A stretch of DNA of 64,000 nucleotides. It comes from Thauera chlorobenzoica (GTDB taxonomy: Bacteria > Pseudomonadota > Gammaproteobacteria > Burkholderiales > Rhodocyclaceae). The position numbers were made by a program, and so were the translations under genes. The number at the start of each line of letters is the position of its first letter. Position 1 is the stretch's first letter. Shown in pieces: positions 1,078 to 21,270 of this stretch. The DNA lies in the NCBI RefSeq assembly GCF_001922305.1, contig NZ_CP018839.1, positions 2,542,001 to 2,606,000 on the forward strand, read 5' to 3'. The notes beneath the pieces are model-generated. The model saw only the letters and a program-made list of their open reading frames with translations, was not told the DNA's origin and made no database searches.

Positions 1078-1436
1078 GTGAAACCCCTCCCGCCGCTGCA
1101 CGCCCCGGCGTGCTCTCGGTCAATATCAGCTCGAAGTCCGCGCTTTATGCCGCTTACATGCCGTTCCTGAAAAACGGCGGCATTTTCGTGCCCACCCCGA
1201 AGACCTACAAGCTCGGCGCCGAAATCTTCATGCTGCTGCAGCTGATCGACGACCCGACGCGCCACCCGGTGGCCGGTACGGTGGTGTGGATCACCCCCTA
1301 TGGCGCCCAGGGCGGACGCACGCAGGGGGTTGGCGTGCATTTTTCCGACGACGATGCGGGCAAGGTGTTGCGCGGGCGCATCGAGCAGATCCTCGCCGGG
1401 CACCTCGGCTCGAGCCGGCCCACGCATACGCTGTGA
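1074..1436 (+). CDS. pilZ: Type IV pilus assembly protein PilZ
   Basis: This 120-residue single-domain protein is the pilus-type PilZ needed for type IV pilus biogenesis and twitching. Diagnostic stretches are FLKNGGIFVPTP, GTVVWITPYGAQGGRTQGVG and VHFSDDD. The RxxxR element that binds cyclic di-GMP in signalling PilZ domains is not visible, as expected for the pilus-type founder protein, which does not bind this nucleotide. The ATG overlaps the holB stop, and the holB-pilZ-tatD order is a familiar betaproteobacterial arrangement. No pilus structural genes lie in the window. Confidence 0.93.
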   Translation: MSETPPAAARPGVLSVNISSKSALYAAYMPFLKNGGIFVPTPKTYKLGAEIFMLLQLIDDPTRHPVAGTVVWITPYGAQGGRTQGVGVHFSDDDAGKVLRGRIEQILAGHLGSSRPTHTL

Positions 1437-1513
1437 TCTCGCCGCCGGGGGCGGGCGGGATCGGCGCCGCGCCGGTCCGTCCGATCCCGGTTTTTCGCCA
1501 TGCAAACGGATAC

Positions 1514-2323
1514 ATGATGTACGTCGATTCGCACTGCCACCTCGATTTCCCCGATCTTGCCTGCCGCGAGGACGAGATCCTCACCACCATGGCCGCCAAC
1601 CGCGTCGGCGCTGCGCTGTGCGTCGGCGTCAAGCTGGAGGATTTCCCGCGCGTGCTCGGACTGGCCGAGCGCCATCCCCGGTTGTGGGCCTCGGTCGGGG
1701 TGCACCCCGACAACGCCGACTGCGAGGAGCCGACCGTCGAGCGCCTGTGCGAGCTCGCCGCCCATCCCAGGGTGGTGGCGATCGGCGAGACCGGGCTCGA
1801 CTACCACTGGCACCAGGACGCCCCGGAATGGCAGCGGGCGCGTTTTCGCACCCACATCCGCGCCGCCCGCGCCGCCGCCAAGCCGTTGATCATCCATACC
1901 CGCAGCGCCGCCGAAGACACCCTGCGCCTGATGCGGGAAGAACACGCCGCCGAGGCCGGTGGCGTCATGCACTGCTTCACCGAGAGCCGGGAAGTGGCCG
2001 AGGTCGCGCTGGCGCTCGGCTTCTACATCTCGTTTTCGGGTATCGTCACCTTCCGCAATGCCAGGGAACTGAAGGAGGTGGCGAAGATCGTCCCGCTCGA
2101 ACGCCTGCTGATCGAGACTGACGCCCCTTATCTCGCTCCGGTGCCGCACCGCGGCAAGACCAACGAACCCGGCTGGGTCGTGCATGTCGCCGAGGAACTC
2201 GCCCGCCTGCGCGGCGAGCCGCTCGAACGCATCGAACAGGCCACCACCGACAACTTCTACCGTCTCTTCCGCCATGCTCAAGGTCCTCACTCCGGCTCCG
2301 CTTCTGCCCCGCAGGGCACCTGA
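1514..2323 (+). CDS. tatD: TatD family metal-dependent hydrolase
   Basis: This is a TatD/YcfH-type TIM-barrel metallohydrolase, a family with DNase activity in characterised members. The 269-residue protein keeps the full metal set: HCH at residues 7-9 (DSHCHLDFP), Glu92 in GETGLDYH, His128 in PLIIHTR, His153 in MHCFTES and Asp203 in IETDAPYLAP. The frame is open further upstream, but the family start MYVDSHCHLD fixes the start at one of the tandem ATGs at 1514 or 1517. The 3' end overlaps the next gene by about 50 bases in a different frame. The cellular substrate is unknown. Confidence 0.93.
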   Translation: MMYVDSHCHLDFPDLACREDEILTTMAANRVGAALCVGVKLEDFPRVLGLAERHPRLWASVGVHPDNADCEEPTVERLCELAAHPRVVAIGETGLDYHWHQDAPEWQRARFRTHIRAARAAAKPLIIHTRSAAEDTLRLMREEHAAEAGGVMHCFTESREVAEVALALGFYISFSGIVTFRNARELKEVAKIVPLERLLIETDAPYLAPVPHRGKTNEPGWVVHVAEELARLRGEPLERIEQATTDNFYRLFRHAQGPHSGSASAPQGT

Positions 2324-3026
2324 TTCCGGGTCTTTCCAGGCCGTCGCCGGCGTGCGCCGCGCGGCGCTGGTGGCGCTCGCCGCCGCCGCCCTGGCGGCGG
2401 GCGGAGCGCACGCCGGCAGCTACGACGACGCCCTCGCCGCGGCCCGCTTCGGCGATGCGCGCGCCCTCGCCAGCCTGCTCGATCGCGGCATCGATCCCGA
2501 CACCGTCGATGCCCAGGGCAACACCTTGCTGATCCTCGCCGCCCGCGAAGGGCAGGGCGCCGCGGTCGACACCCTGCTGAAGCGGCGGGTGCGGATCGAT
2601 TACCGCAACCTCGCCGGGGATTCGGCGCTGATGCTGGCCGTGCTCCGCGGCCACGACGACGTCGCCCGCGCCTTGCTGAAAGCCGGCGCGAAGGTCAATC
2701 ACGAGGGCTGGGCGCCGCTGCATTACGCCGCCTTCGAAGGGCGCGAGACCCTCGTCGATGCGCTCGTCGCCGCCGGGGCCGAAGTCAACGCCCCGGCGCC
2801 CAACCAGGCCACCGCGTTGTCGCTGGCGGCGCGCAACGGCCACCTCGGCGTCGTCCGCCGCCTGCTCGCGCTGGCGCAGACCGACCTCAACGCGCTCACC
2901 GACACCGGCCTGTCGGCCGACGTCTGGGCCGAACGGCAAGGCAACACCGACATCGCCGCGCTGATCCGCGCCGAGCGCCAGCGCCGCGGCCTGCCCGCGC
3001 CGGCGCTGCGGCTCAGGATCGAGTAG
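2274..3026 (+). CDS. Exported ankyrin-repeat protein
   Basis: The protein has 250 residues. The N-terminus is basic, followed by a hydrophobic Ala-rich stretch (AALVALAAAALAAGGAHA) that looks like a signal peptide with cleavage near AHA, so a periplasmic location is likely. The mature part is built of about five ankyrin repeats: TLLILAAREGQGAAVDTLL, SALMLAVLRGHDDVARALL, APLHYAAFEGRETLVDALV and TALSLAARNGHLGVVRRLL are the clearest. Such repeats mediate protein contacts; the partner is unknown. The ATG lies inside the end of tatD, and the 3' end overlaps the convergent anSME gene by 14 bases. The start could be later, but the signal peptide supports this one. Confidence 0.85.
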   Translation: MLKVLTPAPLLPRRAPDSGSFQAVAGVRRAALVALAAAALAAGGAHAGSYDDALAAARFGDARALASLLDRGIDPDTVDAQGNTLLILAAREGQGAAVDTLLKRRVRIDYRNLAGDSALMLAVLRGHDDVARALLKAGAKVNHEGWAPLHYAAFEGRETLVDALVAAGAEVNAPAPNQATALSLAARNGHLGVVRRLLALAQTDLNALTDTGLSADVWAERQGNTDIAALIRAERQRRGLPAPALRLRIE

Positions 3027-4335
3027 GGGGGGGCGGCCGCCCCGTCCGTGGTGGCCGGCCCTGCCACTGGCGGGCGAGCGCCATGATCTGCGCTGCCGGG
3101 CGCTGCTGGCGCAGCAGCTCGGCCATTTTCCGCATGTAGGGGTCGATGTGGCGGAAAAAGTGGCGGTAGCCCGCGCACAGGTAATTGAGCCCTGGTTCGC
3201 CGTCTGGGGTGTCCAGGAAGCGATGTTTCGGGCATTCGCCGTGGCAGGCGAAGCGGAACTCGCAGCGTCGGCAATAGGCGGGCAGGGTGTCGCTCTTGTC
3301 GGCGCCGAATTTACGCTGCGCCGGTGAATCGACCATGTTGGCCAGAGTGCGCTCGCCCAGCCTGCCCAGGCGGTACTGCGGATAGACGTAGTGATCGCAG
3401 GCATAGACGCTGCCGTCGTGCTCGATGGCGATCGCCCGCCCGCAGGTTTCGGCAAATACGCACAGCGACGAGCCGTGTCCGAGCCAGCTTCCGAGCGCAT
3501 TGTCGAACAGCTGGACGAAAGTCGAGCCGACGTCTTCCCGCACCCATTCATCGAATATCGCGGTAAGGAAGTTCCCGTAGGCGACCGGCATCACGCTCCA
3601 GGGGGCCGGCCTGGTCCGGGTGCGCTCGCCGGGGCAGGGGGGAGAGGCGAGACCTCCGCCGCGGTTTGCGTCTACCTCGCGCTCGACGAGGGGGATGAAC
3701 TGGATGAAGCGCGCGCCGATGTCCTTCAGGAATCGATATACCTTGAGCGGATGCTTGACGTTGCGGCGATTGACTACGGTCAGGGTATTGAACTCGACGC
3801 GATGCTGCTTGAGCTTTTCGATCCCCTGCCGCACGCGGGCAAAGCTGGGGCCGCCACGCGGGTCGATGCGGTAACTGTCATGGAGCTCGGCGGGCCCGTC
3901 GATGCTGACACCGACCAGAAAACCGTGCTCGGCGAGAAACTCGCCCCATGCGTCGTCAATCAGGGTGGCGTTGGTCTGCAGCGCATTGGTGATCGGGCGC
4001 CCATCGGCGAAGCGCTGCTGCAAGGTGAGCACTTTGCGAAAGAAGTCGACGCCGAGCAAGGTCGGCTCGCCACCTTGCCAGGCAAAGGAAATTTCGGCGG
4101 CGTCCTGCAGGCGGATGTAGTCGCGGATGAAGTTTTCCAGCACGTCATCGGGCATCCGCAAGCTGGCCGACGACGGAAAGAGCGCGCTCTTGTCCAAATA
4201 GAAGCAGTAGGTGCAGCGCAGATTGCACGCCGGCCCGATCGGTTTGGCGAGGGTATGGAAGGGGCGGGTGCGCGCTTGTGCCGGGGGCGGGAGGGGGGCG
4301 GCGTACGCGGCGGGCGGGGAAAGTGCGTCGGTCAT
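3013..4335 (-). CDS. Anaerobic sulfatase-maturating radical SAM enzyme (anSME)
   Basis: This enzyme converts the active-site Cys or Ser of a sulfatase to formylglycine without oxygen. The 440-residue protein has the radical SAM motif C37-x3-C41-x2-C44 in CNLRCTYCFYLDK. It also carries the SPASM-type auxiliary cluster cysteines in LCVFAETC, YACDHYVYP, YCRRCEFRFACHGEC and YLCAGYRHFF. The Asp right after Cys in YACDHYVYP corresponds to the residue proposed as catalytic base in characterised anSMEs. The ATG at 4335 overlaps the stop of the upstream IclR gene (ATGA), so both come from one transcript. The likely client is the CxPSR sulfatase at 8343-9896. The pairing is inferred from family and neighbourhood. 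Confidence 0.92.
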   Translation of the reverse strand: MTDALSPPAAYAAPLPPPAQARTRPFHTLAKPIGPACNLRCTYCFYLDKSALFPSSASLRMPDDVLENFIRDYIRLQDAAEISFAWQGGEPTLLGVDFFRKVLTLQQRFADGRPITNALQTNATLIDDAWGEFLAEHGFLVGVSIDGPAELHDSYRIDPRGGPSFARVRQGIEKLKQHRVEFNTLTVVNRRNVKHPLKVYRFLKDIGARFIQFIPLVEREVDANRGGGLASPPCPGERTRTRPAPWSVMPVAYGNFLTAIFDEWVREDVGSTFVQLFDNALGSWLGHGSSLCVFAETCGRAIAIEHDGSVYACDHYVYPQYRLGRLGERTLANMVDSPAQRKFGADKSDTLPAYCRRCEFRFACHGECPKHRFLDTPDGEPGLNYLCAGYRHFFRHIDPYMRKMAELLRQQRPAAQIMALARQWQGRPPRTGRPPPPTRS

Positions 4336-5195
4336 GACTTGTCCGATTTCCTGTGGGAGAAGGCGGTCTCGGGCACCGTCTGGTCTCGTTCTCGCCCGCT
4401 GGCGGAGCCCGCCTGAAGGCTCGATGCAAGCGCCCGCGCGGCTTCGAGCAGATCGGGCAGATAGTCGTGGGCGATGGCGTCGGTGCTTGCCGCGCTGGAC
4501 AGCCACACCAGGTTGAGCACAGCCAGCACCTTGTCGTCGGCCGCCAGCACCGGGACCGCGATCGCATCGAGCGGCTCGGGCGGGGAGTCGTGGCTGAGCC
4601 AGTAGCGCGCCATCCGGGTCCCATAGCCGTGCTCGCGGACTTCGCGCAAGGTCCGCTCGACCCAGCCGGGGGCGGTGACGATGCGGTCCCGCGGGTCGCT
4701 CGAACGTGCCAGGGCCTCGAGTAACTCTGCGCGCTCGTCGTCCGGACAATAGGCGAGGTAGGCGCGCCCGAAGGCCGACCACGGGATGTGGACACGAAAG
4801 CCGATGACGCGGTAGTTGAGCTGCAGGCTCAGCGCGCGCGAGGTTGATTCGAGGATGTGCATCCGGTACTGGTCGCGAACCGCGATCGAGGACGGCCAGC
4901 CGGTCTGCTGCTGCAAGCGCTCCAGGATGGGACCGGCGCGTTCGATCAGGTGCTCGTGCCGGCCGGGGATGTGGCTGCGGATGCGCAATTCGGCACGCAG
5001 GCGGTAGCGGTGGTCTCCCAGCCCACGAAAGACCCAGCCCTGTTCGACGAGGGTTCTCAGAATGCGCAGCAAGGTGGCCTTGGCAAGACCGGTGCGCTCC
5101 TGCAGTTCGGCGAGTGCGACGGGTCCGGTTTCCTGGAGGGTTTCGATCACCACCAGTCCGCGGGCGAGTGCAGCAATGTTTTTCACCATGACCAT
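4332..5195 (-). CDS. IclR-family transcriptional regulator
   Basis: This 287-residue regulator has an N-terminal winged helix (residues ~10-65, with LAELQERTGLAKATLLRILRT cut into the helix-turn-helix region) and a C-terminal IclR effector domain containing IAVRDQYRMHILESTS, AFGRAYLAY and PLDAIAVPVL. It is transcribed divergently from the TRAP/sulfatase genes across a 141-base gap and is coupled to the anSME gene by a four-base overlap. It is therefore the natural regulator of the island, probably responding to the imported substrate or its product. Resemblance to MhpR/PcaR-type members is general and gives no ligand. An in-frame ATG two codons downstream is an alternative start. Confidence 0.9.
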   Translation of the reverse strand: MVMVKNIAALARGLVVIETLQETGPVALAELQERTGLAKATLLRILRTLVEQGWVFRGLGDHRYRLRAELRIRSHIPGRHEHLIERAGPILERLQQQTGWPSSIAVRDQYRMHILESTSRALSLQLNYRVIGFRVHIPWSAFGRAYLAYCPDDERAELLEALARSSDPRDRIVTAPGWVERTLREVREHGYGTRMARYWLSHDSPPEPLDAIAVPVLAADDKVLAVLNLVWLSSAASTDAIAHDYLPDLLEAARALASSLQAGSASGRERDQTVPETAFSHRKSDKS

Positions 5196-5240
5196 GGCCC
5201 AAGAGTGTGTCCGGTCTGAAGACTAATGAAGTGGTGCCGT

Positions 5241-5253
5241 TTCACCAAGTGAA
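5241..5253. promoter_or_regulatory. Candidate IclR operator palindrome
   Basis: TTCACcaaGTGAA is a perfect 5-bp inverted repeat with a three-base centre. It lies inside the divergent gap between the IclR gene and the TRAP permease gene. IclR regulators commonly bind short palindromes in such gaps. A second, wider inverted repeat, CGGTTTC (5283-5289) with GAAACCG (5312-5318), lies nearer the TRAP gene. Function is inferred from position only. Confidence 0.4.
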
Positions 5254-5336
5254 CCTTCCCCCTATTGCGATCGCGGCCATTGCGGTTTCATTCGGATCAA
5301 ATCGGTGGCCAGAAACCGATACCAAAGGAGCGAGAC

Positions 5337-7235
5337 ATGAACGAACCGGAAAACTGCACCCCCTGGGGGCGCAGGTTATCTTCAGCAGCGATTTTCGTCC
5401 TCGCGGCGGCAATCGTGCTCGGGGCCCTGCATACCGCGTTTTATGGGGTCTATGACGACACCCTGGTCCGCGTCGGCGGCCTGTCGCTGGCGGTCTTTCT
5501 GCTGCTGCTGCGGATGTCCGCCGCGCACCCGCGCCCGAAGCTGCGGCAGGGGGTCGATGTGGGGCTCGGCCTGGTGTTTGCGGCATCAATGCTGCACTAC
5601 GCCAGCATCGCCGAACTGCTCGAGACCGGGCTGTGGTTTCCCGAACACATCGACCTCGTGTATGGCCTGGCCGGGCTGGCGGTGCTGCTCGAGCTGGCGC
5701 GGCGCACGGTCGGTTTTCCATTGTTGCTGGTGTGCCTGCTGACCATCGCCTACGGTCTGTACGGCGCCAGCCTGGGCGAAACCCTCGGTCATGCCGGGAT
5801 GGATCTGGAGAACCTGACGCTCACCCTGTGGTACAGCTTCGAAGGCGTGTTCGGGCGCCCGCTCGCGGTCGTCGTCGATACCATCGTGGTCTTCATCATC
5901 TTCGGCGCGCTGATGGAAGGGTTGGGAATCGGCGATGCCCTGCTCAAGCTCGCGGTCCGCAGCCTGGGCTGGCTGCGCGGCGGCGCCGCCCATGCGGCGG
6001 TGCTGGCGAGCGCGCTGTTCGGCACGGTGTCGGGCAGCGCGGTGGCCAACGTCGTCGCCACCGGTGTGGTGACGATCCCGATGATCCGGCGCAGCGGGTT
6101 CTCGGCACGCTTTGCCGGTGCGGTCGAGGCGGCAGCGTCGAGCGGAGGGCAGATCACGCCACCGATCATGGGCGCGGTGGCGTTCATCATGGCCGACCTC
6201 ACCGGCATCCCCTACCTGTCGATCTGCGTGGCGGCGCTGCTGCCGGCCTTGCTCTATTACCTCAGCCTGTTCGCGTGTATCGCGGTCGAGGCGCAGCGGG
6301 CCGGCATCGAACGCCCGGATCGCGCCAGCCTGCCGAGCCTGAACCGCAGCGACTGGGCGATGATCGCGGTGTTCTCGGTCAGCCTGTTGATCGTCGTGGT
6401 CCAGCTCGTGCGCGGGGTGTCGCCCGCGCTTGCCGGCTTCTGGGCGGTGCTCGTCGCGCTCGTCTTCGGCCTCGCGGCCAATCCGCAGGCGCGCTCGCTG
6501 CGGGTGTTTTCCCGTGCCGTGCGCGGTGCCGGGGACGCCAGCGCAACCGTGATCATCGCCGTCGCCGCGGTGGGGGTGATCGTCGGCGTGATGAACTACA
6601 CCGGCATCGGCCTGCGCTTTGCCGGCGCGGCGTTGTCGTTCGCCGACGGTTCGCTGTTCCTGTCCCTGCTGGTGATGGCGGCGGCCTGCCTGGTGCTGGG
6701 AATGGGCATGCCGACCGTGCCGGCCTATCTGGTGATCATTCTGGTGATGGGGCCGGCGGTCGAGGCGCTCGGCGTGCCGACGGTGGCAGCGCACCTGTTC
6801 GTGATCTATTTCGCGGTGATGTCGGCGATCACTCCGCCGGTGTCGCTGGCCGCCTTCGCCGCCGCGCCGATCGCCAACGCCAACCCGCTTGGGATCAGCC
6901 TGGTGGCGATGCGGATCTCGCTGCTCGGTTTCGTTGTGCCTTTCGTGTTTGCCTACAGTCCCTCGCTGCTACTGATCACCGATTTCAGCTGGACCGAGCT
7001 GCTGTGGGCGCTCGCCCGCCTGGGACTGGCGTCGTGGCTGCTGGCGACGGTGTTTACCTGCGGGATCGTGGGCATGGTGGCCGGCCTGCTCGCGCTGTTC
7101 GCCCTGGTGTCGCCGCTGCTTGGCCTTCAGCTTGGTGGCGCGGTGCTTGGTGTGGCTGCGCTCATCGCTCGACACAAAGGGTTCATCCGCGCCACAAGTC
7201 CTTGTGGCGGGGTCACGCCGGCGCCCTGCGCCTGA
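5337..7235 (+). CDS. TRAP transporter fused permease (4TM+12TM type, TAXI class)
   Basis: This 632-residue polytopic membrane protein is the fused small and large permease of a TRAP uptake system. The N-terminal third has about four hydrophobic helices (DctQ-like). The rest is the DctM-like domain with the family segments FGTVSGSAVANVVATG, SSGGQITPPIMGAVAF and the second-repeat LGMGMPTVPAYLV and AITPPVSLAAFAAA. It would use an ion gradient and a periplasmic binding protein to import an organic anion. The chosen ATG has a strong AAAGGAG site at 5324-5330; the frame is open about 24 codons further upstream, but without such a site. The cognate TAXI binding protein follows after 22 bases. Confidence 0.94.
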   Translation: MNEPENCTPWGRRLSSAAIFVLAAAIVLGALHTAFYGVYDDTLVRVGGLSLAVFLLLLRMSAAHPRPKLRQGVDVGLGLVFAASMLHYASIAELLETGLWFPEHIDLVYGLAGLAVLLELARRTVGFPLLLVCLLTIAYGLYGASLGETLGHAGMDLENLTLTLWYSFEGVFGRPLAVVVDTIVVFIIFGALMEGLGIGDALLKLAVRSLGWLRGGAAHAAVLASALFGTVSGSAVANVVATGVVTIPMIRRSGFSARFAGAVEAAASSGGQITPPIMGAVAFIMADLTGIPYLSICVAALLPALLYYLSLFACIAVEAQRAGIERPDRASLPSLNRSDWAMIAVFSVSLLIVVVQLVRGVSPALAGFWAVLVALVFGLAANPQARSLRVFSRAVRGAGDASATVIIAVAAVGVIVGVMNYTGIGLRFAGAALSFADGSLFLSLLVMAAACLVLGMGMPTVPAYLVIILVMGPAVEALGVPTVAAHLFVIYFAVMSAITPPVSLAAFAAAPIANANPLGISLVAMRISLLGFVVPFVFAYSPSLLLITDFSWTELLWALARLGLASWLLATVFTCGIVGMVAGLLALFALVSPLLGLQLGGAVLGVAALIARHKGFIRATSPCGGVTPAPCA

Positions 7236-7257
7236 TCAACGGGAAAGGAGACGGAAC

Positions 7258-8280
7258 ATGCAATTCCTGCAGCGGAAAAAATGGTTTTGCCGGGGCGTTC
7301 TCGCCTTGAGCGCGGCCGCGTTGAGCTTCGGCGCGGGTTTGAGCCACGGCGCGCAGAACCTGCGCCTGTCTACGCTGGGGCCGGGCTCGGCGCCGTATGT
7401 GGTGATGACCACCTTCGCCAACATCGTCAACGAGCATGTCCCCGACTATCGCATCCAGGTCAATGCCACCGGCGCGGCGACCCGGCATGCGGTCGAAACC
7501 GCCCAGGGACGCTCCGAGTTCTGCCTGAACACACCCCATCAATATGACATGATGGTCAAGGGGGGCGGTCCTTATGCGAATGTTCCGAAGAGCGGGGAGT
7601 TGTCGAAAAATCTGCGGTCGGTGTTCAGTTTTCCGATCGGGGTCTATCACATCCTGACCTTTGGCGACTCGGGCATTCATTCCCTCGACCAGATTCGCGG
7701 CAAGCGTGTCTATCTGGGGCCGCCGGGATCGGTCGCGTTCGATACCACCCAGCGCATTGTCGCCCTGATGACCGGTCTGAAGGCCGATCAGGATTACACC
7801 GCGATCAAGCTGGGCTGGGATGCGGCAGCGCAGAGTTTCCAGGATGGACATATCGACGTCTACTTCAACCCGACGCTGGCGCCGAGCCCGGTTGTTGCCC
7901 AGCTCGCCCTGGTACGCAAACTGCGGTGGATCGGCATCGATCCGGCCCGCCTTTCGGAACTGCTTGCACGCCCGGGGTACCGCGCCGTACGGATCGAGCC
8001 GGCCGTCTATGGCGATGGGCTGGCAAACGAGGCGCCGGTGACCGCTCTGCGGATGACGGCCAGCATGGGAACCAATAACGCCCTTTCCGAAGAGGCGGTC
8101 TACGCGATGACTTCGGCGTTCTGGAAGCATCTCGATACCTATGCCGCAAGTACACCAGTGCTGCGCAACGTCCGCCTCGAGGAAGCGCTTGCCGATGCCA
8201 ATACCCCGCTCCACCCGGGCGCCGCACGCTTTTACCGTGAGCAGGGGATGACGATCCCGGCGGCGCTACTGGCGCAGTGA
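7258..8280 (+). CDS. TAXI-family TRAP solute-binding protein
   Basis: This periplasmic solute receptor partners the fused permease just upstream. The 340-residue precursor starts with a signal peptide (basic MQFLQRKKWFCR, hydrophobic core, cleavage near SHGAQ). Then follow the TAXI-type opening LRLSTLGPGSAPYVVMTTFA, IQVNATGAATRHAVE, and GKRVYLGPPGSVAFDTTQRI. An AAAGGAG Shine-Dalgarno lies eight bases before the ATG. TAXI receptors bind dicarboxylates, glutamate or other organic anions, and the ligand cannot be read from sequence. The sulfatase gene 62 bases downstream suggests a sulfated ligand. Confidence 0.93.
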   Translation: MQFLQRKKWFCRGVLALSAAALSFGAGLSHGAQNLRLSTLGPGSAPYVVMTTFANIVNEHVPDYRIQVNATGAATRHAVETAQGRSEFCLNTPHQYDMMVKGGGPYANVPKSGELSKNLRSVFSFPIGVYHILTFGDSGIHSLDQIRGKRVYLGPPGSVAFDTTQRIVALMTGLKADQDYTAIKLGWDAAAQSFQDGHIDVYFNPTLAPSPVVAQLALVRKLRWIGIDPARLSELLARPGYRAVRIEPAVYGDGLANEAPVTALRMTASMGTNNALSEEAVYAMTSAFWKHLDTYAASTPVLRNVRLEEALADANTPLHPGAARFYREQGMTIPAALLAQ

Positions 8281-8342
8281 AAGGACAGGGGCGCGTCCCG
8301 CTGCGGGCGCAGGCACGATTGACGGATCAGGGACCGATCGAA

Positions 8343-9896
8343 ATGAAACCGAACATCCTCTTCATCATGGCCGACCAGCTGCGCGCCGACTACCTGTCGT
8401 GTGCGGGGCATCCGAGCGTAAAGACGCCGACGCTCGACCGCCTCGCCGCGGAGGGGGTGCGCTTCGAACGGGCCTTCTGCAATGCGCCGGTGTGCGGACC
8501 GTCGCGGATGTCGTTCTACACCGGACGCTACCCGGCCAGCCATGGCGCGACCTACAACAACGTGCCACTGCGGGTCGATGAGCTGACCCTCGGCGACTAC
8601 CTGCGCCCGCTCGGCTACCGGGTCGGGCTGGTCGGCAAGACCCACATGCGCGCCGATATCGAGGGCATGCGGCGGCTCGGCGTCGACCCCGAATCGAGCC
8701 GCGGCGTGTATGCGCGCGAATGCGGATTCGAGCCGTTCGAGCGTGACGACGGCCTGCATCCGGATGGAGCGGTCGATTCCGACCTGCCTTACAACCGCTA
8801 CCTGCGCCAGCACGGTTTCGGTGGCGACAACCCCTGGCACGAGTGGGCCAACAGCGCGCTCGACGACAATGGTGAGCGGGTCAGCGGCTGGTATCTGCGC
8901 AATGCACACCTGCCGGCGCGGGTGCCGGAGCCGCATTCGGAAACGGCTTACATGACCGATCGCGCGATGGACTTCATTCGCGAAACCGGCGATGCGCCAT
9001 GGTGCCTGCACCTGTCCTACATCAAGCCGCACTGGCCATACATGGCGCCGGCGCCCTATCACGCGATGTATGGCGCTGCCGATGTGTCGCCGCCCAATCG
9101 CAGTGTCGCGGAACGGGGCAATGCCCATCCGGTCGTGCGCGCCTTCCGTCAGCACGAGGAAAGCGTCAATTTTTCCCGCGACGAAGTGCGCGCGCGCGTG
9201 ATCCCGACTTACATGGGCCTGATCAGCCAGCTCGACCACCACCTCGGGCGGCTGTTCGATTTTCTGCGCGAACAGGGGCAGTATGAAAATACCCTGATCG
9301 TGTTTACCAGCGATCATGGCGACTTCCTCGGTGACCACTGGCTGGGGGAGAAAGAAGTGATGTATGAGGAGGCGCTGCGCATTCCGATGATCGCCCGCCT
9401 GCCCGGTGGAGTCCGCGGCCGGATATTCGAGCAGATGGTCGAGTCGGTCGATCTGGTCCCGACTTTTCTCGAACTGGCCGGCGGTGACCGCCACGACCAT
9501 GTGCTCGAGGGGCGCTCCCTGCTGCCCTTGCTGAAGGGCGCGCGGCCGCCGTGGCGCGATGCCGTTTTCGCCGAAATGGATTACGCCTGGCGCCCGGCCC
9601 GCGCTGAGCTCGATGCGGCGGCCGACGGCGCCCGTGCCTGGATGGTGCGTACCGAGCGCTGGAAATACATCGAGTACCAGGGGTTTGCGCCCCAACTGTA
9701 CGATCTCGAGAGTGATCCCGTCGAGCAGCATGATCTGGGTACGGCAGCGGCCTACGAAGCGGTGCGCCGGATGCTGGCCGACCGCCTGCACGACTGGTTG
9801 CGCACCCGGCGGATGCGCAAGACGATCTCCAACGAGACGGTCTCCGCGCTGACCGGCAGCGCGCGCCGGCGCGGGTATATCTTCGGGGCATGGTAG
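8343..9896 (+). CDS. Formylglycine-dependent sulfatase / phosphonate monoester hydrolase-like enzyme
   Basis: This 517-residue alkaline-phosphatase-fold hydrolase has the sulfatase signature at Cys51, CGPSRMSFYTGR, where Cys51 would become formylglycine. Metal ligands are visible in FIMADQLRADY near the N-terminus and in FTSDHGDFLGDH. The Asp-Gln (DQ) form of the first motif resembles choline sulfatases and phosphonate monoester hydrolases more than classical arylsulfatases. No signal peptide is seen, so it should act in the cytoplasm on imported substrate. The gene lies between the TAXI binding protein and SulP genes, and its 3' end overlaps the SulP start. The anSME at 3013-4335 is the expected maturase. 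The exact ester is unknown. Confidence 0.92.
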   Translation: MKPNILFIMADQLRADYLSCAGHPSVKTPTLDRLAAEGVRFERAFCNAPVCGPSRMSFYTGRYPASHGATYNNVPLRVDELTLGDYLRPLGYRVGLVGKTHMRADIEGMRRLGVDPESSRGVYARECGFEPFERDDGLHPDGAVDSDLPYNRYLRQHGFGGDNPWHEWANSALDDNGERVSGWYLRNAHLPARVPEPHSETAYMTDRAMDFIRETGDAPWCLHLSYIKPHWPYMAPAPYHAMYGAADVSPPNRSVAERGNAHPVVRAFRQHEESVNFSRDEVRARVIPTYMGLISQLDHHLGRLFDFLREQGQYENTLIVFTSDHGDFLGDHWLGEKEVMYEEALRIPMIARLPGGVRGRIFEQMVESVDLVPTFLELAGGDRHDHVLEGRSLLPLLKGARPPWRDAVFAEMDYAWRPARAELDAAADGARAWMVRTERWKYIEYQGFAPQLYDLESDPVEQHDLGTAAAYEAVRRMLADRLHDWLRTRRMRKTISNETVSALTGSARRRGYIFGAW

Positions 9897-11635
9897 TCTC
9901 GTCGCCCCCGTTATTGGCACGTTCGATGAACGCTTCTCATCCGACCCGGGCAGAGCGCGTGTTCCCGTTCCTCGGCTGGCCGCGCCTGTGGCGCCAGCAC
10001 GGGGTGCGCGGCGACCTCGTCGCCGGCGTCACCGTCGCCCTGGTGCTGGTACCGCAGGCGCTGGCCTATGCGCAGCTCGCCGGCCTGCCTCCCCATCTCG
10101 GCCTCTATGCGGCCTTGCTGCCGGCGTTGGTGGGGGCCTTGTTCGGCTCCTGCGGGGCGCTGTCGACCGGGCCGGTGGCGCTCACCTCGCTGCTCTCGGG
10201 GGCGAGCCTGCTGTCGCTGGCGCAGCCCGATACGCCCGAATTCATCGCGCTCGCGGTCGTGCTCGCGCTGCTGTCCGGGCTGATCCAGCTGGCGCTGGGT
10301 CTGCTGCGCGCCGGCTGGCTGCTGAACCTGCTGTCGCGCCCGGTGATGGCCGGCTTCATCAATGCCTCGGCGCTGCTGATCGGCTTGTCCCAGCTGCCTG
10401 CGCTGCTCGGCCTGTCGCTGCCCCGGTCCGGGCATTTCCTGCTCGATCTGTGGCATATGCTTGCAGGCTCGGGTGCGCCACACCTGGCGTCCGCGCTGTA
10501 TGGCGGCCTGGCCCTGTTCGCGCTGGTCGCGCTGCGTCGGCTCGTGCCCCGCTTGCCTGGAGTGCTCCTGGTGGTCGCGTCGGCGACCGCGGTCTCGGCG
10601 CTCACCGGGTTCGCCGCACAAGGCGGCGCCGTGGTCGGTGCGCTACCGTCCGGCCTGCCTTCCCTCGGCCTGCCGGTGATCGACGGGAACATGCTGGTGA
10701 CCCTGTTCCCGGCTGCGTTCGTGATCGCGCTGGTGAGCTTCATGGAGGCAGCCTCGAGTGCGACCGTGATCACCGCCCGTACCGGCATGTCGTGGAACCA
10801 GAACCAGGAGCTGATCGGCCAGGGGCTGGCCAAGCTGGCCGCCGCCGCGAGCGGTGCGATGCCGGTCAGCGCGTCGTTTTCGCGCTCGGCGCTCAACCAT
10901 GCCAGCGGCGCGCGTAGCGGATTGTCGTCGCTGCTCACCGCCGCCGGCGTGCTGCTGAGCCTGCAGTACCTCACCCCGCTGCTGTGGCACCTGCCGATCG
11001 CGGTGCTCGCCGCGGTGATCCTGGTGGTGGTGGCCAGCCTCGTCGACTTTCGCGCGCTGACGGGGGCATGGAAGGCCGGGCGCGACGACGGTCTGGCGGC
11101 GGTGGTGACCTTTTGCGCGACCCTCGTGTTCGCCCCCGACATCCAGAACGGCATCCTTACCGGACTGATGCTGTCGCTGGCGCTGATGCTCTACCGCGAC
11201 ATGCAGCCGCGGGCGGCCCTGCTCGGCATGCACCCGGATGGCACTTACCGGGACTTGACGCGTTTCGGTCTCGAACACCCCCATCCCAATCTGGTCATCC
11301 TGCGCTTCGACAGCCCGTTGACCTTCGTCACCGCGAAGGCTTTCGAAGAGGCGGCGGCGCGCGCCGCCCAGGCCCAGTCCGAAGTCAAGGTCCTGCTGGT
11401 TTCCGCGGCCGGGATCAACGCCATCGATGCCACCGGTCAGCATGCGATTTCCACCCTCCACGAGCGCCTGCGCCTGAACGGCCAGGTGCTGGCCTTCTGC
11501 GGGCTGAAGAAGCAGGCCGTCGACGCCCTCGAGCGCACCGGGCTATGGGCGCGCTTGAGCGAGCACGGGCAGTACCGCACCGAACATCACGCGCTCGACA
11601 CCCTGCTGCCCCGTCTTTCCCGACCCTCCGGCTAG
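9890..11635 (+). CDS. SulP-family anion transporter with C-terminal STAS domain
   Basis: The 581-residue protein belongs to the SulP/SLC26 family of sulfate or other anion transporters. The membrane domain opens with the family segments GVRGDLVAGVTVALVLVPQA and LAYAQLAGLPPHLGLYAA and continues to about residue 430. A cytoplasmic STAS domain follows, with NLVILRFDSPLTFVTAK and INAIDATGQHAI. The first ATG (9890) overlaps the sulfatase stop by seven bases; an alternative ATG at 9926 gives MNASHPTRAERVF. Coupling to the sulfatase suggests it moves the sulfate released by hydrolysis, in or out. SulP members also carry bicarbonate or dicarboxylates, so the substrate is inference. Confidence 0.92.
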   Translation: MVVSSPPLLARSMNASHPTRAERVFPFLGWPRLWRQHGVRGDLVAGVTVALVLVPQALAYAQLAGLPPHLGLYAALLPALVGALFGSCGALSTGPVALTSLLSGASLLSLAQPDTPEFIALAVVLALLSGLIQLALGLLRAGWLLNLLSRPVMAGFINASALLIGLSQLPALLGLSLPRSGHFLLDLWHMLAGSGAPHLASALYGGLALFALVALRRLVPRLPGVLLVVASATAVSALTGFAAQGGAVVGALPSGLPSLGLPVIDGNMLVTLFPAAFVIALVSFMEAASSATVITARTGMSWNQNQELIGQGLAKLAAAASGAMPVSASFSRSALNHASGARSGLSSLLTAAGVLLSLQYLTPLLWHLPIAVLAAVILVVVASLVDFRALTGAWKAGRDDGLAAVVTFCATLVFAPDIQNGILTGLMLSLALMLYRDMQPRAALLGMHPDGTYRDLTRFGLEHPHPNLVILRFDSPLTFVTAKAFEEAAARAAQAQSEVKVLLVSAAGINAIDATGQHAISTLHERLRLNGQVLAFCGLKKQAVDALERTGLWARLSEHGQYRTEHHALDTLLPRLSRPSG

Positions 11636-11698
11636 GGGCGGGCCGCCGTCGGCGCGAAAGCCGGCAAAGAACGTCATCGATCCCGCCCCACCGGCCGC

Positions 11699-12493
11699 CT
11701 ACCGTTCATCCTGCGTCAGCGATGCCAGATATTTCCCCGGGGGCCGGCCAAGGGCCTTCTTGAACATGGTGATGAAGGCGGTGACCGATTCGTAGCCCAG
11801 TTCGGCGGAGACTTGCTGCACGCTGGCGCCAGCGGCCAGCCGGCGCAGGGCGACCAGGAGCTGCAATTGCTGGCGCCAGCGCCCGAAGCTGAGGCCGGTT
11901 TCGCGCAGCATCAGGCGGGCGAGGGTGCGCTCGCTGGTGGCGACGCGGGCCGCCCATTCGGGCAGGGTGGCGCGGTCGGCCGGGTTGCGGGTCAGGGCGT
12001 CGGCAATGTGGCGGATGTGCGGCTCGTCCGAGATCGGCAGATGAAGCTGTTCGACCGGCATGTTCGGCAACTCGTCGAGCAGCACGCGGGCGACGCGGCC
12101 GGTGGCGCTGTCGGCAGCGTACTCGTGCGGCTGGTCGGCAAGGTGCTGGATCAGCTCGCGCACGAGGGGCGAAATCGCCAGCGTGCAGCAGCGGTGCGGC
12201 AGCGCGGTGGCGCCCGGCGCGACGAACAGCAGGCAGATGCGGGCGTTGGGCGTGACCCGGTTGCTGTGTGGCATCGCACCGGGCACCCATACCGCACAGT
12301 TGGGCGGCACCATCCACAGCGCATGGGGCACCTCGCAGCTGATGGCGCCGCGCAGCGCGAGCACGAGTTGCCCCTTGCGGTGCCGGTGCACTGGAGTTTC
12401 GTTGTCGTTCCTGGTCGTTTCGACCCGCAGGGCGATCGCCGGGCTGGTGATGCGGTCGGGGTCGAAGTGGCGCAAGGAGGCATCGAGGAGCAT
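11699..12493 (-). CDS. AraC-family regulator, NimR-like
   Basis: This 264-residue protein has an N-terminal cupin-type sensor domain (ETPVHRHRKGQLVLALRGAI, PHALWMVPPNCAVWVPG) and a C-terminal AraC DNA-binding domain with two helix-turn-helix units (LPEWAARVATSERTLARLML and VQQVSAELGYESVTAFITMF). This layout matches the E. coli NimR (YeaM) group. It diverges from an MFS gene of the NimT/CynX group, which is the same arrangement as nimR-nimT, so it probably controls that exporter. The inducer is not evident. Confidence 0.9.
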   Translation of the reverse strand: MLLDASLRHFDPDRITSPAIALRVETTRNDNETPVHRHRKGQLVLALRGAISCEVPHALWMVPPNCAVWVPGAMPHSNRVTPNARICLLFVAPGATALPHRCCTLAISPLVRELIQHLADQPHEYAADSATGRVARVLLDELPNMPVEQLHLPISDEPHIRHIADALTRNPADRATLPEWAARVATSERTLARLMLRETGLSFGRWRQQLQLLVALRRLAAGASVQQVSAELGYESVTAFITMFKKALGRPPGKYLASLTQDER

Positions 12494-12511
12494 CGGCGTG
12501 GCTGTTTTTGG

Positions 12512-12528
12512 AGATTAATTGGCAATCT
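12512..12528. promoter_or_regulatory. Inverted repeat in the AraC/MFS divergent promoter
   Basis: AGATT at 12512-12516 and AATCT at 12524-12528 form perfect 5-bp arms around a seven-base centre, about 19 bases upstream of the AraC start. It is the clearest symmetric element in the 101-base gap and could be an AraC/NimR operator. This is a positional inference only. Confidence 0.3.
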
Positions 12529-12594
12529 ATCCAGATACTCCCGGCCGGTAAATCCGTAAGCTTGGCGACATCGCAAGTTTTTCCGGATTCCCCC

Positions 12595-13821: not shown

Positions 13822-13844
13822 GGACGCTCCTGCCGTGCGTGCCC

Positions 13845-14819
13845 TTAGCGGGCTTCCCACAGCTGATCGACCACCTTGCGGGAGATGGCGAGCAGGACCC
13901 GGCGGCGATATTTGACTCCGGTGATGGTGGTCCTGAGCACGTTGGAGGTCTTGCGCACCAGCTGGGCCAGGGTCTCGGCTGCTGCGTCGTCCCAGTTGCC
14001 GCCCACCAGCGCGTCGACCGGCACCATCAGGGGGGCGGAGTTGGAGCCGGTGATGGCCACTCGCAGGCCGGCGATCCGGTCCCCGTCACGATGCAGGGCG
14101 GCGGCGACGCCGGCCAGCGGAAAGTCGACGGCATCGCGGATGCGCACCTTGGAGTAGGCGGCTTTCCAGGCACCGGTGGGCGGAACCTCGATCGCCGCGA
14201 GCAGTTCGCCCTTCTCCAGGGTCAGGTGCTCGGCGCCGCTTTCGCGGAACAGCTGCGCCACCGGCACGGTGCGTTTGCCGGCGGGGCCGACGATCTCGGC
14301 GCGGGCGTCGAGCACCATCAGCGCGGGGGCGACGTCGCCGTGATAGGTCGCGTAGCAGCGATCGCTCTTGACGATCACGTGGCACTTGTCGCCCTTGTAC
14401 TTGAGGCAATAGCTGTTGCCGGAGCGCCACCATTCGCTCTGGTTGTAGAAGGTGCAGCGCGTGTCCTGGCACAGGTTGCCGCCGAGGGTGGCGGCGGCGC
14501 GGTGGGTCGGCCCGGCGACCGATTCGGCGGCCTGGGCCAGGGCCGGCCAGCTCGTCCGGATGGCGTCGTGCTCGGCGATGGCCTCCAGGGTGGCGCCGGC
14601 GCCGAGGCGCAGGCTGCCGTCGGCCAGCGTCGAGATGACGCCGAGGCCGTCGATGCCGGTCAGGTCGACCAGCGCGGCGGGGTGGCCCAGGCCACGGCGC
14701 AGGTTGGGCAGCAGGTCGGTGCCGGCGCCCAGGGGAACGGTAGCGTCGGCGGCCAGGGCGTTGACTGCGTCGGCCAGGGTGGCGGGACGGTGGGTGCGGA
14801 AATCGGTGAGGATGTTCAT
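13845..14819 (-). CDS. hcrB: 4-hydroxybenzoyl-CoA reductase, beta (FAD/4Fe-4S) subunit
   Basis: This is the FAD subunit of 4-hydroxybenzoyl-CoA reductase, which removes the phenolic hydroxyl to give benzoyl-CoA in anaerobic aromatic degradation. The 324-residue protein has the xanthine-oxidase FAD-binding fold ([34 protein letters not shown]). It also has the enzyme-specific inserted loop with cysteines at 122, 138, 146 and 155, the positions known to hold an extra [4Fe-4S] cluster in the Thauera enzyme. That cluster underlies the reversed electron flow compared with other xanthine-oxidase relatives. The ATG overlaps the hcrA stop by four bases. Confidence 0.97.
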
Positions 14820-17125
14820 GCTGCGGCTTCCTTGGCGTCGAGCAGTTCAGTGATGCGGTCGGGGCTGAGCGGGAAATCGGTGGCGCGCACGCCCACCGCT
14901 TCGTACACCGCTTCGTGGATCGCGGGAAGGAATCCGGCGAGCATCCCTTCCGAGGCCTCCTTGGCGCCGAACGGGCCGTTGGGGTCCATGCTCTCGACGA
15001 TGATCACCTCGATGTCGGGGCTCTCCACGATCGTCGGCACCCGGTAATCCAGGATGTTGCCATGGACCATGCGGCCGTTGTCATAGACCGTCTCTTCCGA
15101 CAGCGCCTGCCCCATGCCCATCCACACGCCGCCTTGCGTCTGGCCTTCGACCGCCAGCGGATTGAGGGCTTTGCCCACGTCGACCGCCACCCACACCTTG
15201 TGCGCGGTGACCTTGCCGGTGATCTCGTCGACCGAGGCCTCCACCACCTGGGCGGCGTAGCAAAAGCCCATGGTGGCGCCGATCGCGCTGCCGCGGATCT
15301 TCTTGTCGCCCTGGAATTCGGTCGGGCAGGTGTAGGTGCCCTTCACCGTGATGGTGCCGGAGTCGATCATCGCGGCCTTGACCACTTCCTGGAAAGTCAG
15401 CCCCGGGTCCTGGCTGCCCGAGACCATGAATATCTCGTCGATGACTTCGATGTCTTCCTCGCGGGCGTCGAGCTTCTTCGCCGCGGCCTTGACCAGGACG
15501 CCTTTCAGCTCTTCGGCGGCGGAAATGGAGGCGTTGCCGACCATGAAGGTGACGCGCGACGAATAGGAGCCGTTGTCCTTGGGGGTCAGCGCGCTGTCGG
15601 CGGAGATCACCCGGATGCGGTCGAGGCGCACGCCCAGCACTTCGGCGGCGACCTGCGAGGCCATGGTGTTGGAACCCTGGCCGATGTCGGCGGCGCCGGT
15701 GAGCAAGGTGATGCCGCCGTCGAAGTCGAGCTTCAGGTTGACGGTGGCGTGGGGCTCGCCGGTCCAGTGCTTCGGCGTCGAGGTGCCCGACACGAAGTGC
15801 GACAGCGCGATGCCGAGGCCGCGCCCTTTGGGCAGCTTGCCCTTGCGTTCTTCCCACCCCGAGGCAGCCTTGACCTTCTCCAGGCACTCCGGCACGCCGT
15901 AGCTCATCACCCGCTGGGCGTACATGGTGACGTAGGGGATCTGCGGCAGCATGTTGATCTGGCGGATCTTGAGCGAGTCGATGCCCAGCTCCTCGCCCAT
16001 TTCGGTGAGCAGCGCCTCGAACGCGGCGCGGGTATCGACCGTGCCATGGCCGCGCATCGCGCCGCAGGGCGGGGTGTTGGTGTAGACGCGCCAGGCGTCG
16101 TGCTTGATCGCCGGGATATGGTAGAGCCCGTGCATCAGCGCGCCGGTGTAGAGGATGGTGATGATGCCGTAGCCGGCATAGGCGCCGCCGGCCTGGGTGG
16201 CTTCCAGCGCGAGGGCGGCGATCTTGCCGTCCTTCTTCAGGCCGATCTTCATCTTCACTTCGGTCCACGGCCGGCCGCGGTGGGCGATGAAGGTTTCCTC
16301 GCGCGTCTGCAGCAGGCGCACCGTGCCCTTGGCCTTGCGTGCCAGCAGCCCGGCGATGATCTCGAAGTGCAGGGCCTCGGTGCGGGCGCCGAAGCCACCG
16401 CCGAGGAAGGGCTTGATCACGCGGATGCGCGCCGAGTCCATCTGCAGGCAGGCCGCCACCTTGAGATGCACGTAGTAGGGCACCTGGGTGGTGGTGTTCA
16501 GCGTGAGCATGTCGCGCACCGGGTCGTACTCGGCCAGGGTGGCGTTCAGCTCCATATGAACGTGGTTGACTTCGGCGAAGGTGTAGGTCTTTTCGCGGAC
16601 CAGGTCGGCTTCGGCGAAGGCGGCGGCGACGTCGCCGAACTCGGCGTGGACTTCGCGCAGCACGTTGTTGGGCTTGTCGTCGTGAAGGGCGACCGCGCCT
16701 GCCTTCATCGCCGCCTTGGGCGTCATGTAGGCGGGCAGGACCTCGTAGTCGACCTTGATCAGGCCGAGCGCCTTCTCGGCGGTCACTTCGTCGATGGCGG
16801 CGACGGCCGCCACCGGGTCGCCGCGGTAGCGCACCTTGTCGCGGGCGAGCGGGTACTCGTTCTCGGCGATCGGCAGCACGCCGAACGGCACCGGGGTCTC
16901 GGCGCCGGTGCATACGGCGATGACGCCTTCCAGGGCTTCGGCGGCCGAAGTGTCGATGGCGAGGATGCGGGCGTGGGCATGGGGCGAGCGCAGGATGCGC
17001 CCCACCAGGGCATCGGGAGCGGCGATGTCGGCCGTGTACTTGGCCTTGCCGGTGACCTTCTCGACGCCGTCCACCAGCGGGGTGCGGACGCCGACGGTGC
17101 CGTGCTTGGGGAGTTTCGGGTTCAT
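14816..17125 (-). CDS. hcrA: 4-hydroxybenzoyl-CoA reductase, alpha (molybdenum) subunit
   Basis: The catalytic subunit carries the molybdopterin cytosine dinucleotide cofactor and binds 4-hydroxybenzoyl-CoA. At 769 residues it has the length I recall for Thauera HcrA. Visible motifs are the cofactor segment [49 protein letters not shown] and the C-terminal [15 protein letters not shown], in which Glu726 aligns with the conserved active-site Glu. The frame extends six codons further upstream, but the ATG at 17125 has a GAGGAGGG ribosome site and overlaps the hcrC stop (ATGA). It forms a heterotrimeric unit with HcrB and HcrC. Confidence 0.97.
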
Positions 17126-17607
17126 CGCGCACCCTCCTCGCACAACCGGGCCGCGGCTGCGGTTTCGACCGATTCAATGATCTTCACATAGCCGGTGCAG
17201 CGGCAGAGGTTGCCGGCGAGCGCGGCCTTGATCTCGTCGCGCGACGGGGAGGGGTTCTTCCGCAGCAGCGCCTCCGACGCCATGATCATGCCCGGGGTAC
17301 AGAAGCCGCACTGGGTGCCGAGCTTTTCGTGGAAGGCGGCCTGGAGCTTGGACAGCGTGCCCTGGGTGGCCAGGGATTCGACCGTTTCCACCTTCTTGCC
17401 GGCGACCTGATGGGCGAGGGTGGAACAGGCCAGGCGGGGCCGGTCGTCCACGAGGACGGTGCAGGCGCCGCACTCGCCGCCGTCGCAGCCCTGCTTGGTA
17501 CCGGTCAGGCCGACGGTTTCGCGCAGGTAATCCAGCAGCAGCATGTTGTCGGGAACAAGGTCCTCACGGGCGCGCCCGTTGAGGGTCAGACGAAGGATGT
17601 TTTTCAA
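17122..17607 (-). CDS. hcrC: 4-hydroxybenzoyl-CoA reductase, gamma (2Fe-2S) subunit
   Basis: The 161-residue electron-transfer subunit binds two [2Fe-2S] clusters. The plant-type cluster uses Cys41, Cys46, Cys49 and Cys61 ([11 protein letters not shown]), and the second uses Cys100, Cys103, Cys135 and Cys137 ([19 protein letters not shown]). The sequence closely resembles the Thauera aromatica protein as I remember it. Translation appears to begin at an unusual TTG codon, six bases after a GGAG site; no ATG or GTG start would preserve the conserved N-terminus [10 protein letters not shown]. It is the first structural gene, nine bases after marR, in a marR-hcrC-hcrA-hcrB operon. Confidence 0.97.
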
Positions 17608-17616
17608 GGTTGACTC

Positions 17617-18117: not shown

Positions 18118-18154
18118 GAAATCCTCTCGATGACTCTGCGCGGATTGTTAACCA

Positions 18155-19370: not shown

Positions 19371-19375
19371 CGTCC

Positions 19376-21229: not shown

Positions 21230-21270
21230 AGCCGTGACCGGCCCGATTCACGAAACCACAAGGAAACCCG

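What the first reader, a model, noticed from the sequence alone, without database searches (positions are those of the whole stretch)
3013..11635. Self-contained organosulfate uptake-and-hydrolysis island with an anaerobic maturase
Six adjacent genes combine an IclR regulator, an anSME, a fused TRAP permease, a TAXI binding protein, a CxPSR sulfatase without signal peptide, and a SulP/STAS transporter. Every part fits one pathway: import by TRAP, cytoplasmic desulfation, formylglycine formation without oxygen, sulfate transport. TAXI-TRAP transport paired with a sulfatase and its own maturase is a combination I do not recognise as described. Seen: the genes, motifs and overlaps. Known: the family functions. 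Inferred: the pathway.
Basis: partly seen in the sequence, partly recalled or inferred. Interest (0 to 1): 0.75.

Follow-up and report, generated by a model that had tools for sequence, protein, structure and literature searches.

The report
Sulfate-ester uptake and cleavage gene island
A bacterium carries a compact set of genes that probably imports an organic sulfate ester, cuts off the sulfate inside the cell and switches the cutting enzyme on without oxygen; related sets, without that switch-on gene beside them, occur in several marine and salt-loving bacteria.

Summary
The sulfatase groups with the solved arylsulfatases SpAS1/SpAS2 rather than phosphonate hydrolases, and keeps their specificity histidine. 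This genome has one anSME over cut-off, one CxPSR sulfatase, and no FGE-domain protein except an EgtB-type one, so the anSME is the only known kind of maturase available.

Of 62 non-SAR11 relative loci, 9 have TAXI within 4 kb of the sulfatase, 7 of them also the fused TRAP permease and 5 also IclR. A predicted operator, TTCAC-N3-GTGAA, occurs in 11 of 13 IclR loci (window included) and in 2 of 85 loci without a near IclR. No anSME lies near the sulfatase in 87 relative loci, 32 of which have under 4 kb on one side; of 30 such genomes tested, 25 have FGE-domain proteins and 3 an anSME elsewhere. So the anSME looks like a local addition. SulP is associated but separable. The substrate is unknown; a sulfated aromatic acid is my best guess. 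New variant of a known kind.

The parts
3013..4335 (-). anSME: radical SAM/SPASM anaerobic sulfatase maturase
   Evidence: TIGR03942 504.9 bits, cut-off 349.45; PF04055 and PF13186; aligns with 4k36, CNLRCTYC motif and SPASM cysteines aligned
4332..5195 (-). IclR-family regulator; stop overlaps the anSME start by 4 bases
   Evidence: PF09339 and PF01614 over cut-off; nearest NCBIfam model PRK09834.1-3 155.7 bits, below its cut-off 269
5241..5253 (.). predicted IclR operator TTCACCAAGTGAA between the two divergent units
   Evidence: only exact match in 64 kb, 0.02 expected; same inverted repeat in 11 of 13 IclR-sulfatase loci, window included
5337..7235 (+). TRAP transporter fused permease (DctQ/DctM)
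   Evidence: TIGR02123 497.8 bits, cut-off 320.65; PF06808
7258..8280 (+). TAXI-type TRAP solute-binding protein with signal-peptide-like start
   Evidence: TIGR02122 145.3 bits, cut-off 84.35; PF16868; solved relatives 8s4j, 1us4
8343..9896 (+). cytoplasmic SpAS1/SpAS2-type arylsulfatase; C51 in CGPSR; His in KTHMR
   Evidence: PF00884; 4upi 581.5 bits, 4upl 563.2 bits against RlPMH 236.2; Cys at this column in 89 of 89 rows
9926..11635 (+). SulP/STAS anion transporter, probable sulfate carrier; open frame from 9890
   Evidence: PF00916 and PF01740; TIGR00815 368.9 bits, just under cut-off 380.45; start 9926 shared with G294
13845..17607 (-). HcrB, HcrA, HcrC: 4-hydroxybenzoyl-CoA reductase, in the same lineage-specific block; functional link to the island not shown
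   Evidence: TIGR03195, TIGR03194, TIGR03193 all over cut-off; no close copy beside the ankyrin gene in the 6 genus members looked at besides G294

Best explanation
This is a regulated uptake-and-desulfation module. The IclR protein binds TTCAC-N3-GTGAA between the two divergent units and controls both (inferred). The TAXI-TRAP system imports an organic acid bearing a sulfate ester (inferred). The SpAS-type arylsulfatase hydrolyses it in the cytoplasm (family shown, activity inferred). Its Cys51 becomes formylglycine through the neighbouring anSME, the only known kind of maturase in this genome (genome content shown, reaction inferred). The SulP protein moves the released sulfate, most likely outward (inferred). 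The freed organic part enters catabolism; an aromatic acid is the best guess. The core is closest to one in halophilic and marine gammaproteobacteria, whose tested genomes hold FGE-domain proteins; in this lineage an anSME joined the regulator's unit, which suits growth without oxygen.
For: Family calls. Nearest solved enzymes SpAS1/SpAS2, whose specificity-determining His is kept (50; PMC5488252 passages, 48). One anSME over cut-off, no FGE-domain protein but an EgtB type, one CxPSR sulfatase in a 99.99% complete single-contig genome. Clustering with TAXI/TRAP and IclR in relatives, with a near/far control. In the sulfatase tree the window pairs with Aquisalimonas lutea (100/99) inside a set of 7 rows (95/82), the other six gammaproteobacterial, 5 of the 7 with TAXI (59). 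FGE-domain matches in all six of those genomes, G441-G445 and G450, best scores 99.8 to 207 bits. Operator in 11 of 13 IclR loci against 2 of 85 without a near IclR, 0.12 expected in shuffles; L009 has a second copy before its TRAP genes. At least ten identical longest-contig lengths between the 120 listed sulfatase hits and the 120 listed TAXI hits, each pair sharing a source, read by eye. Relatives also pair the sulfatase with DctP or TctC transporters.
Against: No assay, ligand or expression data. 39 of 62 non-SAR11 loci have none of the scored TAXI/TRAP/TctC genes within 4 kb, though over a third of all 87 loci are cut short on one side. SulP persists intact in G294 after the rest was lost, is just under the sulP model cut-off and is near only 3 other sulfatases. 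Aromatic neighbours outside SAR11 are few: FAD monooxygenase 4 near, 2 far. IclR is under the cut-off of every regulator equivalog matched. IclR locus L139 lacks the operator and L015 has it with one mismatch. Many relatives have CGGSR, CGSSR or similar instead of CGPSR (29). G443, one of the six nearest genomes, also has an anSME over cut-off, but beside another sulfatase.
Confidence: 0.6

Rival explanations
1. Sulfur scavenging: the module takes sulfate from varied esters for sulfur nutrition, and SulP imports inorganic sulfate.
For: SulP proteins commonly import sulfate (established knowledge); the nearest solved SulP is a plant sulfate transporter, 7lhv.
Against: IclR regulators usually govern carbon catabolism (established knowledge). 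The importers used by relatives (TAXI, DctP, TctC) are known mainly for carboxylates (TAXI and DctP: PMC11574862 passages; TctC: established knowledge).
Confidence: 0.2
2. The TAXI-TRAP imports an ordinary organic acid and only sits beside the sulfatase by shared regulation or history.
For: The characterised TAXI proteins in the passages seen bind glutamate (PMC11574862, PMC12344293); the transporter label changes at least 19 times over 4 groups on the sulfatase tree.
Against: TAXI genes are near 10 times, far 0. The position aligned with the key Gln93 of VcGluP is Leu, Ile or Val in 9 of 10 sulfatase-linked TAXI proteins and Gln only in the window; two divergent TAXI copies, L010a and L194, were left out of that count. 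The alignment is at low identity.
Confidence: 0.12
3. The sulfatase is really a phosphonate monoester or phosphodiester hydrolase.
For: Its best NCBIfam model is PehA; the superfamily is promiscuous (PMC5488252 passages).
Against: PehA score 313.7 against cut-off 900; bit scores to SpAS1/2 are more than twice those to PMHs; His at the residue that sets sulfate preference.
Confidence: 0.05
4. The substrate is choline-O-sulfate.
For: Choline sulfatase is a related family; TIGR03417 matches at 245.1 bits.
Against: Below cut-off 433.45; SpAS1 and SpAS2 gave no detectable choline from choline-O-sulfate (PMC5870055 passages).
Confidence: 0.03

Closest known systems
SpAS1 and SpAS2, arylsulfatases of Silicibacter (Ruegeria) pomeroyi (PDB 4upi, 4upl)
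   Same: Homologous over almost the full length, same nucleophile region, same KTHMR His and DHGD-type metal motif
   Different: The passages seen treat them as single enzymes and describe no transporter, regulator or maturase context
TAXI-TRAP glutamate transporters VcGluP and TtGluBP
   Same: TAXI binding protein; with its fused TRAP permease the window matches the TAXI and fused-permease models; VcGluP from PMC11574862 passages
   Different: Aligned with 8s4j and 1us4, the loop that carries the key Tyr is 3 residues shorter, and the key Gln is not kept in 9 of 10 sulfatase-linked copies
Solved anaerobic sulfatase maturase 4k36 (from Clostridium perfringens, recalled)
   Same: Radical SAM plus SPASM architecture, aligned cysteines
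   Different: Here inside a TRAP-sulfatase island and overlapping IclR; the five other anSME stretches (L201-L205) have only weakly related sulfatases beside or one gene away
Taurine TRAP system TauKLM with exporter TauZ (recalled, no call)
   Same: TRAP import, release of a sulfur anion in the cell, dedicated anion exporter
   Different: Sulfonate and sulfite instead of sulfate ester and sulfate; unrelated enzymes and exporter

Membership tests
SpAS1/SpAS2-type arylsulfatase | Cys nucleophile in a CxPxR-type motif | tested here: met
   C51-GPSR in the window; Cys in 89 of 89 aligned rows (window plus 88 loci, one of them, L143, a different sulfatase); the Pro varies to Gly or Ser in some relatives
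SpAS1/SpAS2-type arylsulfatase | His beside the nucleophile (SpAS1 H103) | tested here: met
   GKTHMR aligned with GKTHMR of 4upi; RlPMH has GYTTT there; role of H103 and T107 from PMC5488252 passages. That this His is H103 is my inference from the alignment
SpAS1/SpAS2-type arylsulfatase | Preference for aryl sulfates | not testable with these tools
   needs an assay
Phosphoric/sulfuric ester hydrolase PehA | NCBIfam PehA score over cut-off 900 | tested here: not met
   313.7 bits
Choline sulfatase | TIGR03417 over cut-off 433.45 | tested here: not met
   245.1 bits
Anaerobic sulfatase maturase | TIGR03942 over cut-off | tested here: met
   504.9 against 349.45
Anaerobic sulfatase maturase | Converts Cys of this sulfatase to formylglycine | not testable with these tools
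   only known kind of maturase found in the genome
TAXI-TRAP transporter | TAXI binding protein with fused permease | tested here: met
   TIGR02122 and TIGR02123 over cut-off, adjacent genes
Glutamate-binding TAXI | Tyr loop and Gln corresponding to VcGluP Y45 and Q93 | tested here: inconclusive
   loop 3 residues shorter; Gln kept in the window but Leu/Ile/Val in 9 of 10 linked copies; low-identity alignment
SulP sulfate permease | TIGR00815 over cut-off 380.45 | tested here: not met
   368.9 bits; Pfam Sulfate_transp and STAS are over cut-off
IclR-family regulator of the PRK09834 (MhpR, name recalled) type | PRK09834 models over cut-off | tested here: not met
   best 155.7 bits against 269; general IclR domains met

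The most novel reading that the evidence does not exclude
A widespread but undescribed catabolic unit for aromatic carboxylate sulfates: one cytoplasmic arylsulfatase lineage with interchangeable carboxylate importers (TAXI-TRAP, DctP-TRAP, TctC), in part run by an IclR regulator through TTCAC-N3-GTGAA, and matured in different hosts by FGE, by anSME, or by a still unknown route. Here it would feed 4-hydroxybenzoyl-CoA reductase encoded 2.2 kb away, giving anaerobic use of a sulfated hydroxyaromatic acid. SAR11 would carry the unknown-route version.
Probability: 0.3. Interest if true: 0.7.

Novelty: new variant of a known kind. Interest (0 to 1): 0.5.

Why it matters
How bacteria import small sulfate esters and cut them inside the cell was little described in the papers I could search. 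A transporter, enzyme, maturase and predicted operator in one place give a direct handle on the substrate. The same sulfatase family also meets different maturation set-ups: an adjacent anSME here, FGE-domain proteins in 25 of 30 genomes tested (some of them possibly EgtB-like), and none in 17 of 18 SAR11 genomes that carry it, which makes the old question of a third maturation route testable.

Tried and rejected
Tried and dropped:
(1) Phosphonate hydrolase and choline sulfatase readings, by model cut-offs and the His residue.
(2) A recent insertion of just the six genes: G294 is collinear on both sides and lacks about 3044-9806, but keeps a decayed tail of the sulfatase and a stub of the anSME end, so it looks like a loss there rather than a gain here.
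(3) The anSME as a conserved member: 0 near the sulfatase in 87 relative loci.
(4) Long repeats at the island edges: the 32-base imperfect pair 2953/9841 is weak and I draw nothing from it.
(5) Aromatic neighbours as a statistical signal: too few outside SAR11.
(6) Paper searches on sulfated phenolics, SAR11 maturases and Rhodocyclales: nothing on this combination in the listings.

Structure prediction and fold search were not used, since close solved relatives exist.

Rows dropped before counts. L143 (unrelated sulfatase), and L048 and L137 (sulfatase frame not called); 22 of the 25 SAR11 loci, L048, L137, L143, and of the 12 loci added (L189-L200) L190 (same stretch as L022) and L192. L048, L137, L143, L190, L192. 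Gln93 count: TAXI copies L010a and L194. The first starts I used for TRAP and TAXI were wrong and were corrected.
Full report
Observation. The six genes exist as described. They form two divergent units: IclR-anSME leftward (4-base overlap) and TRAP-TAXI-sulfatase-SulP rightward, with 141 bases between. The sulfatase has C51 in CGPSR and no signal peptide. The SulP start is probably 9926 rather than 9890: in the closest relative the first ATG is out of frame, and the second opens an intact 568-residue SulP.

Which sulfatase. The best solved relatives are SpAS1 (4upi, 581.5 bits) and SpAS2 (4upl, 563.2), far ahead of the phosphonate monoester hydrolase RlPMH (236.2). In SpAS1, His103 sets sulfate preference and RlPMH has Thr107 (PMC5488252, passages); the window has GKTHMR where RlPMH has GYTTT. 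SpAS2 turns over 4-nitrophenyl sulfate; its table entry is kcat/Km 2.1 x 10^5, with substrate and units not shown in the passages (PMC12917725, passages). SpAS1 and SpAS2 gave no detectable choline from choline-O-sulfate (PMC5870055, passages).

Maturation. The genome is one contig, 99.99% complete. It has 5 PF00884 genes; the 4 outside the window lack a CxPSR active-site motif by eye and look like phosphoethanolamine transferase or LtaS-type proteins (names by sight). It has 1 anSME over cut-off. The only FGE-domain protein is of EgtB type, next to an EgtD-like frame (names by sight). So the anSME is the only known kind of maturase present. Of 30 genomes with relatives of the sulfatase that I tested, 3 have an anSME over cut-off and 25 have PF03781 matches, some of them EgtB-like or otherwise perhaps not FGE. 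Of the 5 without PF03781, G207 (99% complete) and G452 also have only trivial anSME scores (23 and 20 bits); the other 3 are SAR11.

Conservation. The genome scan found 176 relatives and kept 80 loci; 9 more came from the order. 87 could be scored, 25 of them SAR11; 32 of the 87 have under 4 kb on at least one side. Of the 62 non-SAR11 loci, 9 have TAXI, 7 fused TRAP, 7 DctP, 6 DctM, 7 TctC and 11 IclR within 4 kb; 23 have at least one of TAXI, fused TRAP, DctP, DctM or TctC and 39 have none. Of the 9 TAXI loci, 7 have fused TRAP and 5 IclR. Gene counts near/far: TAXI 10/0, IclR 11/1, fused TRAP 8/0, DctP 7/1, DctM 6/2, TctC 11/4, SulP 2/0, anSME 0/0. Marinobacterium stanieri (L007) has IclR, sulfatase, TRAP, TAXI and SulP in a row. 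Of 12 further loci from the family and class (L189-L200; L190 repeats L022), one has TAXI-TRAP (L194) and one SulP with DctP/DctM and the sulfatase (L198). In the window's order 18 of 250 genomes match at E 1e-50, of which 10 are at 47% identity or more and the other 8 at 35-39%; in its family 3 of 199 at E 1e-30; in the class 11 of 369 at E 1e-120. These counts include the window's own genome.

Tree. In a 76-row sulfatase tree the window pairs with Aquisalimonas lutea (100/99) inside a set of 7 rows (95/82); the other six are gammaproteobacterial, and 5 of the 7 have TAXI. The transporter label changes 19 times over 4 groups, against a shuffled mean of 27.3 (0 of 200 as low), so importers have been exchanged but not at random; near-copies also lower such counts. 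No tree was built for the anSME. Its hits that carry an organism name are from Verrucomicrobiae, Phycisphaerae and Paceibacterota, but the closest hits are unnamed.

Operator. Between IclR and the neighbouring sulfatase or transporter gene I found TTCAC-N3-GTGAA in the window (5241-5253, the only exact match in 64 kb, 0.02 expected) and in 11 of 13 IclR-sulfatase loci, window included; L015 has one mismatch and L139 none. L009 carries a second copy before its TRAP genes; L046 has one further copy away from the control region. 2 of 85 loci without a near IclR have the motif somewhere; mononucleotide shuffles of the 13 loci give 0.12 in all. The motif was read off these same upstream regions, so 11 of 13 is descriptive; the controls are the 85 loci and the shuffles. 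It occurs in loci with TAXI, with DctP and with neither. I do not recall it for a characterised IclR protein; that is recall, not a search.

Place in the genome. In G294 (about 94% DNA identity) window 28-3043 and 9807-22000 are adjacent, with SulP, AraC, CynX, hcrBAC, MarR and cobST kept. The junction holds a decayed sulfatase tail, so G294 probably lost the module. I looked at 7 of the 28 other genus members. In the six besides G294 (L219-L224) none of the genes from anSME to cobST has a close copy in the fetched stretch; L223 has only weak matches to HcrC (43%) and HcrA (24%). In L223 the ankyrin gene is followed after about 26 bases by the counterpart of window 21255, and in L219 and L220 after about 1.5 kb, so the 3027-21250 block is lineage-specific there; in L221, L222 and L224 the right edge was not found close by. 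The hcr genes are over their equivalog cut-offs, which makes a sulfated 4-hydroxybenzoate-like substrate attractive but not shown; G294 keeps hcr without the module.

Other clues to the substrate. In SAR11 locus L070 the scanned neighbours are DctP/DctQ, an FAA-hydrolase family protein, a BphC-like dioxygenase and, 4.8 kb away, an FAD monooxygenase-like protein. By similarity to these, within 4 kb of the sulfatase, 25 of 25 SAR11 loci have DctM, 21 the FAA hydrolase, 20 DctP and 15 the dioxygenase. L006 has an FAD oxidoreductase of the PRK08132 model beside the sulfatase, and L132 a vanillate demethylase-like gene. Outside SAR11 such neighbours are not statistically convincing. In 9 of 10 sulfatase-linked TAXI copies the key glutamate-binding Gln is replaced.

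SAR11. 16 of 118 genomes of that family carry the sulfatase at E 1e-60, the centre genome included. Of those 16 plus G460 and G462, 17 of 18 have no PF03781 match, and the one match has the split EgtB-like pattern. anSME was tested in 3 of them, at most 31.6 bits. Completeness of these genomes is not given, so absence is likely but not proven.

Verdict. What the tools add: the enzyme's family, a core conserved in part of it, a shared predicted operator, the anSME as a local addition in a genome without a true FGE, and a probable loss scar in a sister genome. Substrate, direction of sulfate flow and regulation stay inferred. On checking, several counts were reworded and none of the probabilities was changed.

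Noticed in passing
L059-L085 except L072 and L080; SAR11 genomes carry a Cys-type SpAS-like sulfatase beside TRAP and ring-cleavage-type genes, but 17 of 18 such genomes lack any FGE-domain match; how the enzyme is matured is unclear.
   Followed up: partly
G207 (L133) and G452 (L036); Two further genomes have the Cys-type sulfatase but no PF03781 match and only trivial anSME scores.
   Followed up: no
window 3027-21250: Block from the island through hcrBAC to cobST is absent beside the ankyrin gene in L223, L219 and L220; mobile-element genes were not looked for in detail.
   Followed up: partly
L218 3003-3140: Closest relative G294 has a decayed sulfatase tail and keeps an intact SulP: a probable loss scar.
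   Followed up: yes
L039 2217-3872: Arylsulfotransferase (ASST) gene next to a TctC protein and the sulfatase.
   Followed up: no
L201-L205; L144 2021-3981: In five anSME stretches a weakly related sulfatase is beside or one gene away; in L144 a SulP gene directly precedes an anSME gene.
   Followed up: partly
window 34197-34412: Two tRNA-Asn genes with the same anticodon, 140 bases apart start to start.
   Followed up: no
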